A stretch of 46,544 bases of DNA. Source: Alphaproteobacteria bacterium CG_4_10_14_0_8_um_filter_37_21 (GTDB lineage Bacteria; Pseudomonadota; Alphaproteobacteria; Paracaedibacterales; UBA11393). The notes under the pieces are model-generated. The model did no database searches, was not told where the DNA came from, and saw only the letters and a program-made list of their open reading frames with translations. Every line of letters starts with the position of its first letter. Position 1 is the first letter of the stretch. Below, one piece after another: positions 18,088-35,251 of this stretch. The stretch spans positions 1-46,544 of the forward strand of contig PFNE01000029.1 in assembly GCA_002791835.1 (NCBI GenBank). Reading direction: 5' to 3'. The position numbers and the translations under genes are program-made.

Positions 18088-18287
18088 ATTATTACTATAG
18101 CGCTTGAAAAAGCTACAGTCACTAGGGGTTATAAAAATAATTATAATAAATATTTTTGACTAATTCATTGAACGTTATTATATTATACTTAAGACCAAAA
18201 AACATATTCCCAAGAATCAACTAAAAAGATTCTGAAGATGAACAGTATTATACAATAAACTGTGCATTTTTGGTATCTATCGCCCCC

Positions 18288-18314
18288 TATAATAATATTT
18301 TTTATATTATTATA
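18288..18314 (+). promoter_or_regulatory. AT-only perfect hairpin in the leader of the LRR gene
   Basis: TATAATAATAT (18288-18298) and ATATTATTATA (18304-18314) are perfect inverted repeats of 11 bp around a five-T loop. The structure contains no G or C and ends 35 bp before the ATG at 18350. It could be a weak RNA hairpin, a protein-binding palindrome or part of a promoter. The strand is given as that of the downstream gene. Confidence 0.45.
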
Positions 18315-18349
18315 TTAAACTTACAATTGAATACATAAGGTATATTATC

Positions 18350-19648
18350 ATGTTCATCAACATCACAAAACATATCCTGTTCTTTTTTTTAGTTGGCTCA
18401 CCCCTGGTGGCGTTGGCTAGTGATAATGTGCAATTGAATACACTTATGAAAAGTCATATCGCAACATTTGTACCGAAAAAATATTTAATGTTTATTGTTG
18501 CATCAGGAACAGAAAGTGTAAATATTTATGATGAATCTAATAGGTATCGATTGATGCATTTGGGGATTACCCCCTATCACTGTAAAACATCAAGCGATGA
18601 TGTTCATTGGCAGGAAATTCTCATCACAAAAGAACAGTTGGAAACAATCAATAACTCAAATGTTGATTTATTGATTTCAAGTTTAATCATAAGTGATGAC
18701 CCCACAATAAACATCTCATGGTTAGATAATATTGAAAATATTGTTCTGAGTGATTTTTACCCCAAAGATACAGATGCTTACAAAGGGCTAGGTTTGCTAT
18801 TTTATCATAACGCACACCTTCCCCTTGTTGTAAAATTTGCGCCAAATATTACGTCGACTCCCTTTAATAGTTGTGTTCCAATTAATGTGAATCATTTACA
18901 TTTGATAGGGGAAGTGGGGAAAATTGAGAATAAATTTCTTCAAGGTTGTACAGGTTTAAAGTCGCTTGATTTATCAGGGCTCTCAAACGTGAAATTCATT
19001 GGAGAGAACTTCCTTTATGGTTGTACAGGTTTGACGTCGCTTGATTTTTCACCGTTTTCAAAGGTGACGCACTTTGATGAGGATTTCCTTCGTAATTGTA
19101 CAAGTTTAACGACGCTTAATTTTTCACCGTTCATAAATGTAACACATATTGGTGGTTATTTCCTTTCTGGTTGTACAAGTTTAACGGACCTTGATTTATC
19201 ACCGCTCTCACAAGTGGCAGACATTGAGGATGGTTTCCTGTCGGATTGTGCAAGTTTAACGACGCTTGATTTTTCACCCCTCTCAAACGTTAAAATCATT
19301 AGGTATTATTTCCTTTCTGGTTGTACAAATTTAACGGAACTTGATTTTTCACCGCTCTCAAATTTGCAAACCATTGAGGATTTTTTCCTTTTTGGTTGCA
19401 CAAATTTAACGGAACTTGATTTCTCACCGCTCTCAAACGTGAAAATCATTGGGAATTCTTTCCTGTCTGGTTGTGCAGCTTTAACGTCGCTTAATTTATC
19501 ACCATTTTCAAAAATCACAAGATTCAGAAGACAAGTTTTTGATGGCTGTACTGGTTTAACAAGCATTATAGTGCCCAGCGGGGAATTGTGGTTAAAAAAA
19601 AGAGCGCGGAAAATGAAAAAAGCAAACAGCCTTTCGCCTTTTGTGTAG
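18350..19648 (+). CDS. Secreted BspA-like leucine-rich-repeat protein
   Basis: Exported repeat protein with a signal peptide (residues 1-24, cut after ALA). Residues 25-195 are a unique N-terminal domain. Residues 196-395 hold eight 25-aa repeats with consensus FLsGCTsLTtLDFSPLSNVkiI, and a partial ninth follows (VFDGCTGLTSI). The shared Cys at position 5 of each repeat and the FxGCxxLxxLxxxxxxxxI spacing are those of LRR_5/BspA-like repeats, which often bind host or protist surfaces. The tail is basic (LKKRARKMKK). AAGG sits 9 bp before the ATG. It stands alone with a long structured leader upstream and a 326-bp gap after. A host-interaction role is inference. Confidence 0.82.
   Translation: MFINITKHILFFFLVGSPLVALASDNVQLNTLMKSHIATFVPKKYLMFIVASGTESVNIYDESNRYRLMHLGITPYHCKTSSDDVHWQEILITKEQLETINNSNVDLLISSLIISDDPTINISWLDNIENIVLSDFYPKDTDAYKGLGLLFYHNAHLPLVVKFAPNITSTPFNSCVPINVNHLHLIGEVGKIENKFLQGCTGLKSLDLSGLSNVKFIGENFLYGCTGLTSLDFSPFSKVTHFDEDFLRNCTSLTTLNFSPFINVTHIGGYFLSGCTSLTDLDLSPLSQVADIEDGFLSDCASLTTLDFSPLSNVKIIRYYFLSGCTNLTELDFSPLSNLQTIEDFFLFGCTNLTELDFSPLSNVKIIGNSFLSGCAALTSLNLSPFSKITRFRRQVFDGCTGLTSIIVPSGELWLKKRARKMKKANSLSPFV
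18935..19588 (+). repeat. Tandem 75-bp coding repeats of the LRR protein
   Basis: Eight 75-bp units plus a partial ninth encode the 25-aa leucine-rich repeats. Neighbouring units stay recognisably similar at DNA level, for example the recurring GGTTGTACAAATTTAACGGA. This suggests expansion by recent unequal exchange or gene conversion. Units 6 and 7 (about 19310-19460) look most alike. Confidence 0.8.
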
Positions 19649-19974
19649 ATCATAGAGGAATAAACTTCGCTGATTCATATTTGCTGGCGTCATTTAAGAT
19701 GATGTTCTAAAACTGTCTAAACTAAACGACGGCTTCTTATTCTAGTTTCAAAATTATCGCTGAATTAAACTGGTTTTCTGTTAAGTGAGCGAGAAGTCGA
19801 AGTGTGTATAATATCATGTGTTTTACTAACCCCCACCCTTGCATGATAGAAAAAATGCGAATGGCACTCTTCTTTTAACACCTTAAGTGTTCCTAACAGC
19901 GCGTTTGTAAACCAGATGACTTATTTGTTTAGGGGTGCCATACTAAATGATAAGAAAAAGAACTTATCACGTGC
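19649..19974. other. 326-bp gap between the LRR gene and comEC
   Basis: No convincing gene, tRNA or terminator is visible. Two small inverted repeats are present: AACAC-CTTAA-GTGTT near 19880, and a stronger one just before comEC, described separately. No insertion-sequence ends or direct repeats were noticed. Confidence 0.5.
19948..19969 (+). promoter_or_regulatory. Hairpin holding the purine-rich initiation region of comEC
   Basis: TGATAAG (19948-19954) and CTTATCA (19963-19969) form a perfect 7-bp stem with the loop AAAAAGAA, the only purine-rich tract upstream of ATG 19975. The hairpin ends 5 bp before the start. It might modulate ribosome access. This is sequence observation only. Confidence 0.4.
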
Positions 19975-33783: not shown

Positions 33784-33809
33784 CACCCTCTTTAATACCA
33801 AAGAGGGTG
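33784..33809 (-). terminator. Hairpin between the dsbA-like gene and sdhC
   Basis: CACCCTCTTT and AAAGAGGGTG form a perfect 10-bp stem with a six-base loop. On the minus strand it is followed by a short T-rich stretch (CAATCTTTTC) and then the sdhC ribosome-binding site. It lies 8 bp after the dsbA-like stop, so it is probably a partial terminator or an attenuator, with sdhC read through or started nearby. Confidence 0.65.
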
Positions 33810-35217: not shown

Positions 35218-35251
35218 ACTTCCCATCTTATATAAAAGATGGGAAGTTTTT
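35218..35251 (+). terminator. Rho-independent terminator of the cold-shock gene
   Basis: ACTTCCCATCTT and AAGATGGGAAGT form a perfect 12-bp stem (35218-35247) with a short AT loop, followed by TTTTT within 35247-35251. It separates csp from the helicase gene, which would then need its own promoter or read-through. Confidence 0.93.

What the first reader, a model, noticed from the sequence alone, without database searches (positions are those of the whole stretch)
18350..19648. Secreted LRR protein with 25-aa Cys-bearing repeats: candidate host-interaction factor
Eight 25-residue repeats, each with FL.GC..L..L, follow a signal peptide and a unique N-terminal domain. The repeats are still similar at DNA level, indicating recent expansion. 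BspA-like LRR proteins commonly bind host or microbial surfaces. The gene stands alone between the J-domain and comEC genes, with unusual structured leader DNA, and may be horizontally acquired or diversifying.
Basis: partly seen in the sequence, partly recalled or inferred. Interest (0 to 1): 0.55.

Follow-up and report, generated by a model that had tools for sequence, protein, structure and literature searches.

The report
Probably exported leucine-rich repeat protein
A bacterium that probably lives inside host cells encodes a probably exported protein built from similar 25-residue leucine-rich repeats, most likely a host-binding protein of a known general kind, whose repeat unit also turns up behind F-box-like domains in two relatives and in two phages.

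Summary
ORF 18350-19648 (432 aa) has a signal-peptide-like start, an N-terminal part without known family and eight complete 25-residue repeats in a 75-bp array. It is a BspA-type leucine-rich repeat protein (Pfam LRR_5, 1.1e-35); the predicted solenoid fits solved ones (Z 20.3 to 4fs7). Ten of eleven cysteines stand 25 residues apart. The genome has two related genes (one incomplete) and a remnant; the one same-genus genome searched has none. An ATP/ADP translocase makes an intracellular life very probable. Synonymous sites differ less within the gene than against its paralogues (0.23 against 0.34-0.35), though mean DNA identity is alike. Columns chosen on phage arrays show dN/dS above 1 in six of seven bacterial arrays. 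Two order relatives join such arrays to an F-box near the cut-off; two tailed phages carry four tandem genes of the unit each. Best reading: an exported, diversifying host-binding protein; export, target and delivery are inferred. PARCEL membership fails on dyad symmetry.

The parts
18350..19648 (+). LRR protein gene, 432 aa and stop
   Evidence: ORF; Pfam LRR_5 1.1e-35 (122.7 bits, cut-off 27.7)
18350..18418 (+). signal-peptide-like start, residues 1-23 (A-L-A|S)
   Evidence: hydropathy; cleavage site judged by eye
18419..18790 (+). N-terminal region, residues 24-147; no family found
   Evidence: 0 Pfam families listed at E<=10 for residues 1-197; pLDDT mostly under 50
18791..18880 (+). possible N-terminal cap before the repeats, about residues 148-177, weakly shared with relatives
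   Evidence: alignment (by eye); 33% identity, E 2.7e-4, with the C20 remnant over residues 119-170
18881..18955 (+). degenerate first 25-residue unit, residues 178-202
   Evidence: C175 and C200 are 25 apart
18956..19555 (+). eight complete 25-residue LRR units, residues 203-402
   Evidence: block means of pLDDT 91-96 over residues 231-380
19556..19645 (+). C-terminal cap and basic tail, residues 403-432
   Evidence: helix 413-422 in the model, pLDDT 36-84
18288..18314 (.). 11-bp perfect A/T hairpin in the leader; significance weak

Best explanation
It is a Sec-exported, BspA-type leucine-rich repeat binding protein of an obligately intracellular alphaproteobacterium, one of a small set of related genes whose repeat arrays expand or are homogenised within the gene while a set of columns is driven to differ. 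Each 25-residue unit adds one turn of a solenoid; the Cys of each unit stacks into a cysteine ladder in the core (no disulfide needed), and the variable columns supply the binding face. The protein leaves the cytoplasm by its signal peptide and most likely binds a host protein; in two relatives such an array follows an F-box-like stretch, that is, it would choose targets for a host ubiquitin ligase. Shown here: ORF, repeats, fold class by prediction, paralogues, patchy distribution, synonymous-site clustering, column-specific divergence, F-box matches in relatives, translocase marker. Inferred: export, delivery past the outer membrane, host target, stacking of the cysteines, exposure of the variable columns.
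For: LRR_5 1.1e-35. AF2 model with block means 91-96 over residues 231-380; Z 20.3, 3.0 A, 250 residues to 4fs7; 18.3 to TpLRR 6mlx; 17.0 to InlJ 3bz5, titled as having a cysteine ladder, which is also Foldseek rank 1. 10 of 11 Cys at residues 175, 200..., 400. C7, C5 and remnant C20 in the own genome. ATP/ADP translocase 3.8e-161 in the own genome, 0 of 14 control genomes ring. Fourfold mismatch 0.23 within the gene, 0.34-0.35 against C5 and C7; 0 of 1000 label shuffles reach the gap for either. Nearest unit in the same gene: window 6 of 8, C7 9 of 10, C5 8 of 8, G002 8 of 8, G027 5 of 6, G021 14 of 14, G017 9 of 9. dN/dS at columns 4, 10, 17, 18, 21, 22, 24, 25, chosen on six phage arrays: window 2.92 (bootstrap 1.64-7.97), C7 1.92, C5 1.96, G002 4.88, G027 2.04, G017 5.83; with all codons as reference: window 1.34 (1.14-1.75), the same five 1.83-3.42. 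F-box in the same frame as the array in G017 (21.8 bits) and G021 (21.5 bits; cut-off 20.5).
Against: No F-box or other known domain in the window protein's N-terminus and no F-box match in the own genome. G021's array gives dN/dS 0.70 and 0.69. For the window array 281 of 5000 random sets of 8 columns reach the same pN. Mean DNA identity of window units is no higher within the gene (69%) than to C5 (70%) and C7 (67%) units. In the phages units mix between the tandem genes: nearest unit in the same gene for 2 of 6, 2 of 7 and 2 of 6 units in three of the four genes tested. The F-box stretches score 15.4-17.8 bits, below the cut-off, when the proteins are scanned whole, and a profile of the three N-termini finds nothing in the PDB at E<=1. 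No export or binding was tested; no secretion system was looked for. The N-terminal part has no reliable model. The same-genus genome shows no such gene.
Confidence: 0.57

Rival explanations
1. A cell-surface or periplasmic adhesin of the BspA / InlJ / PcpA kind: it stays on the bacterium and binds host, vacuole or bacterial surfaces; it is not an effector released into the host.
For: Among the closest solved structures are proteins titled as cell-surface proteins or known as adhesins: 4fd0, 4fdw, InlJ, PcpA, 4gt6. Signal-peptide-like start. Of the 15 plasmid records listed, 6 annotate the matching gene as a BspA family surface protein.
Against: No anchor or second membrane segment was seen: the only 19-residue stretches above 1.6 in hydropathy begin at residues 5 and 9, and the first Cys is residue 78, so no lipobox. 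Two relatives with a signal-peptide-like start (by eye) carry F-box matches, which are hard to place on a bacterial surface.
Confidence: 0.28
2. A phage-borne accessory gene that settled in the chromosome and acts for phage or bacterium, for example in superinfection exclusion, rather than on the eukaryotic host.
For: Two tailed-phage contigs (terminase and connector genes) carry four tandem genes of the same unit each. The window gene has the most deviant codon use of 33 ORFs.
Against: Phage copies lack a signal peptide and have other N- and C-termini (by eye). No phage-like gene is seen by eye beside the window gene among ORFs of 120 aa or more. None of 42 order genomes matches the phages' connector protein (no positive control). 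Phage and bacterial units do not mix.
Confidence: 0.08
3. A PARCEL, that is, a palindromic repeat-coding element spreading by its DNA, with little selected protein function.
For: TIGR02167 61.1 bits against a cut-off of 30; 25-residue unit; patchy distribution.
Against: The best dyad of the window's consensus is reached by 73 of 500 synonymous versions; DUF285 is not among the Pfam hits at E<=1; TIGR02167 also rings, 34.7 bits, for L026, which by eye is an ordinary 23-residue BspA protein. Framework columns of the window array have dN/dS 0.51.
Confidence: 0.04

Closest known systems
BspA-type leucine-rich repeat proteins (Pfam PF13306 LRR_5; solved: 4fs7, 4fd0, 6mlx TpLRR, 4gt6, 4h09)
   Same: Family match, predicted solenoid fold, Cys-Leu pattern, signal-peptide-like start
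   Different: Unit of 25 residues (about LTxLDxSPxSNVxxIxxxFLxGCxx) instead of the usual 23 (recalled; L026 in this order shows the 23-residue kind by eye); arrays in one genome with distinct synonymous signatures
InlJ of Listeria monocytogenes (3bz5, internalin with a cysteine ladder)
   Same: One Cys per repeat in register; Foldseek rank 1, Z 17.0
   Different: 20% identity over the aligned part; no cell-wall anchor seen here; other repeat length (recalled)
F-box/BTB-LRR families NEX1 and PEX1 of Parachlamydiaceae (Domman et al. 2014, PMC4209131; passages read)
   Same: LRR arrays of variable number in intracellular bacteria; F-box matches before the array in two relatives in this order
   Different: The window protein has no F-box; a Sec-type start instead of the type III signals shown there; that paper reports purifying and no support for positive selection on whole families, here the variable columns exceed 1
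PARCEL / DUF285 / TIGR02167 (Roske et al. 2010, PMC2996958; abstract and passages read)
   Same: 25-residue tandem units, patchy distribution, TIGR02167 match
   Different: No DUF285 match, no dyad symmetry beyond chance in the window array
Phages with host-directed repeat proteins, such as WO and ankyphages (recalled, not searched)
   Same: Repeat proteins of eukaryote-like type on phages of host-associated bacteria
   Different: LRR units instead of ankyrin; the host of these two phages is unknown

Membership tests
BspA-type LRR (PF13306) | Match above the curated cut-off | tested here: met
   122.7 bits against 27.7
BspA-type LRR (PF13306) | Solenoid fold like solved members | tested here: met
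   Z 20.3 to 4fs7, 18.3 to 6mlx, on an AF2 model; a prediction
BspA-type LRR (PF13306) | Repeat unit of 23 residues (recalled; usual, not strict) | tested here: not met
   Units are 25 residues, nine anchors all 25 apart; hence called a variant
BspA-type LRR (PF13306) | Surface exposure and adhesion | not testable with these tools
   needs localisation and binding assays
PARCEL | 25-residue tandem unit matched by TIGR02167 | tested here: met
   61.1 bits; not specific, see L026
PARCEL | Match to DUF285 (PF03382) | tested here: not met
   not among families listed at E<=1
PARCEL | Dyad symmetry in the coding repeats beyond chance | tested here: not met
   window 73 of 500 synonymous versions reach it; of seven arrays only C7 (L009) stands out, 1 of 500; the others 38 to 435 of 500
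F-box-LRR effector | F-box N-terminal to the LRR | tested here: not met
   window N-terminus 0 families; own genome 0 matches; relatives in G017 and G021 have matches near the cut-off
Internalin-like cysteine ladder | One Cys per unit in register | tested here: met
   10 of 11 Cys at residues 175-400, 25 apart
Internalin-like cysteine ladder | Cys side chains stacked in the core | not tested
   no coordinates were examined

The most novel reading that the evidence does not exclude
The 25-residue unit is a shared, self-diversifying recognition cassette: tailed phages and intracellular alphaproteobacteria pass it between them, each bacterial gene re-expands its own array, and the array is plugged behind different exported N-terminal domains (F-box in some, unknown in the window) to aim them at changing host proteins.
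Probability: 0.18. Interest if true: 0.72.

Novelty: new variant of a known kind. Interest (0 to 1): 0.42.

Why it matters
If right, it gives a compact case in which the binding face of bacterial LRR proteins evolves by repeat turnover plus selection at named columns, in a lineage that carries a marker of obligate intracellular life, and links it to phages as possible carriers. Repeat columns, paralogues and phage genes give concrete targets for binding and structure work. As a single gene it is an ordinary member of a large kind.

Tried and rejected
PARCEL: the first palindrome test looked positive for the window (1 of 200) and for several others, but its null broke the likeness between units; with a consensus null the window's signal went. 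Folding energy of the repeat region is no stronger than 60 synonymous shuffles (z 0.44).

Structured leader as a regulator: no Rfam match in the leader, promoter-like sites at chance level over 18088-19974 (7 found, 7.5 expected), no terminator-like site, weak fold.

BTB-like domain in L043's N-terminus, seen by eye: Pfam listed none and a single-sequence model had pLDDT 38.9; dropped.

F-box profile of three N-termini against PDB sequences: no match at E<=1.

Prophage link: the connector ('portal') protein of the two phages is absent from 42 order genomes; an empty answer without a positive control. Two further viral-contig scans brought back the same two records, and one third contig, L073, which by eye reads like the DUF285 kind.

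Plasmid and phage collections gave only matches under 60% identity: 18 and 4 records.

First pN/pS count used columns chosen on the same data and is circular; replaced. A first clustering count included the C-terminal cap as a unit; on check it was redone without it, which showed that mean DNA identity does not separate the window array from its paralogues and that phage units mix between tandem genes; the statements were changed accordingly and two odds lowered slightly.

Organism name: not established; the named contigs nearest to it are only called Alphaproteobacteria or Proteobacteria MAGs. That the order is Holosporales-like is my guess.

Literature: LRR with 'Holosporales' and 'effector' gave 0 papers. 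The listings (titles and starts of abstracts) showed no description of these proteins; of the listed papers only passages of PMC4209131 were opened.

Full report
What is there. The ORF at 18350-19648 is real and encodes 432 residues. A 75-bp tandem array at 18944-19503 scores 502 (564 at period 150); the next array in the window scores 54. Nine C..L..L/I anchors lie exactly 25 residues apart, giving eight complete units (residues 203-402); C175 adds a degenerate unit before them. DNA identity between the eight units is 51-83%. Ten of eleven cysteines are in register. The start has a hydrophobic core and an A-L-A|S site (and by eye). For residues 1-197 no Pfam family is listed at E<=10.

Kind. 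Pfam LRR_5, BspA type, 1.1e-35. phmmer finds 4fs7 at 9.9e-18 and TpLRR at 7.5e-8. The AF2 model, from a 10-row alignment, has block means of pLDDT 91-96 over residues 231-380, 73-89 at the ends of the array, and mostly under 50 over the first 184 residues. VIA-align gives Z 20.3 to 4fs7 (3.0 A, 250 residues), 19.1 to 4fd0, 18.3 to 6mlx and 17.0 to InlJ; Foldseek puts InlJ, with its cysteine ladder, first. Query TM-scores are low (0.14-0.34 in the 50 rows shown), which I put down to solenoids of different curvature and to the unmodelled N-terminus.

Where it lives. The genome has 1.27 Mb and 98.7% completeness and encodes an ATP/ADP translocase at 3.8e-161; none of 14 control genomes does. I infer an obligately intracellular life from this marker and the genome size. 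Related genes in it: C7 (420 aa, signal-peptide-like start by eye, 10 units counted), C5 (array broken by a stretch of N and a contig end) and a short remnant on C20. The same-genus genome G001 (95% complete, 210 contigs) shows none. There the J-domain gene, found on two contigs, is neighboured on its upstream side by a different small gene and a plsC-like gene (names by eye), and its comEC lies on another contig that ends 96 bp upstream. The window gene thus sits where gene order differs. Its codon use is the most deviant of 33 ORFs; its repeats exceed all 300 sampled segments, which shared ancestry of the units inflates, and its N-terminal 180 codons are matched by 7 of 300. G+C is ordinary.

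Spread. With the protein, 12 of 58 relatives match at E<=1e-5, own genome included. With the profile A1, 11 of 42 order genomes match at E<=1e-8 and 12 of 385 class genomes at E<=1e-15, all 12 of 0.8-1.9 Mb. The sizes of most genomes without a match were not listed, so no enrichment is computed, and the profile also matches 23-residue BspA proteins (L026 of G014), so these counts are not counts of the 25-residue unit. In genome contigs 3 loci were confirmed and in viral contigs 2.

Phages. The two viral records, 51.8 and 51.5 kb, have a large terminase and a connector protein (PHROGs: head-tail adaptor; I read it as the portal) in both, and GroEL and endolysin scanned in one; the second GroEL is by eye. 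Each carries four tandem genes of the 25-residue unit, 3-8 units per gene, without a signal peptide by eye. Their host is unknown.

F-box relatives. In G017 and G021 a 25-residue array of the same type follows an F-box-like stretch just after a signal-peptide-like start. Whole-protein scans give 15.4-17.8 bits, below the cut-off of 20.5; the genome search gives 21.8 and 21.5 bits, above it, in the same frames as the arrays, and 19.7 for a third. At E<=0.1 G021 has 47 F-box matches and G017 18; 24 of 42 order genomes have one, 14 over the cut-off; 4 of 14 control genomes ring, none over the cut-off. The window's genome has none.

Evolution of the array. Without the C-terminal cap, fourfold sites differ 0.23 within the window gene, 0.35 against C7 and 0.34 against C5 (0 of 1000 label shuffles reach either gap), and 0.53-0.87 against other genomes and phages. 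Mean DNA identity within the window array (69%) is no higher than to the paralogues' units (67%, 70%). The nearest unit lies in the same gene for 6 of 8 window units, 9 of 10, 8 of 8, 8 of 8, 5 of 6, 14 of 14 and 9 of 9 in the other bacterial arrays; in phages (four of the eight genes tested) for 8 of 8, 2 of 6, 2 of 7 and 2 of 6, since units mix between the tandem genes of one phage. By phage record all 18 and all 21 units stay within the record (seven of the eight genes). So bacterial arrays expanded or were homogenised gene by gene, phage arrays phage by phage.

Variable columns were chosen on six phage arrays (4, 10, 17, 18, 21, 22, 24, 25) and tested on bacterial arrays: dN/dS 2.92 for the window, above 1 in six of seven, 0.70 in G021. 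With all codons as synonymous reference the values are 1.34 for the window, 1.83-3.42 for five others, 0.69 for G021. In the window array random column sets reach the same pN in 281 of 5000 draws, so the signal there is modest. Counting methods on paralogous repeats with possible gene conversion give a pointer, not proof. Phage arrays, tested on columns chosen on bacterial arrays, give 0.65-2.05.

Mechanism. Most likely the array is a binding face on an exported protein. Which face the variable columns lie on was not tested, as no coordinates were examined. Export, passage over the outer membrane and host target are inferred.

Known or new. PARCELs were considered because TIGR02167 rings. The model also rings for an ordinary BspA protein, DUF285 does not ring, and dyad symmetry is within chance for the window. 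F-box-LRR and BTB-LRR families are known from Parachlamydiaceae, where no positive selection was found (passages). I therefore call this a new variant of BspA-type LRR proteins.

Noticed in passing
L045:2814-5852, L046:3318-5891; records G059, G060: Two tailed phages of about 52 kb, each with four tandem LRR genes of the 25-residue unit and a GroEL gene (second one by eye); host unknown, connector protein absent from 42 order genomes.
   Followed up: partly
L010:2-5971 and L009:2526-5033 (G000 contigs C5 and C7): A very long protein with a signal-peptide-like start (by eye), a NUDIX match and sub-cut-off HAD-type matches, possibly lying between two LRR genes: the contig ends overlap by 28 nt, though internal repeats could cause this.
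   Followed up: partly
L011:5796-6164 (G000 contig C20): Short LRR remnant with about two units and no signal peptide by eye; reads like a decayed copy.
   Followed up: partly
G021, G029, G017, G013 whole genomes: Order relatives with many F-box matches at E<=0.1 (47, 19, 18, 11), while the window's genome has none.
   Followed up: partly
window 18350-19648; L064:1358-1702; L065:4067-4408; L070:537-3590: In G000, G001 and G002 the upstream neighbour of the J-domain gene is a different gene each, and all start like signal peptides by eye.
   Followed up: no
L043:4348-4959: A transposase-like fragment (by eye, IS630 type) lies next to the LRR gene of G027.
   Followed up: no
window 33784-33809 and 35218-35247: Two other perfect intergenic hairpins; with the leader hairpin the only ones with arms of 10 or more and loops of 3-10 in the window.
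   Followed up: no
G000 contig C33:30054-31409: A second, divergent ATP/ADP translocase family match besides the strong one on C53.
   Followed up: no
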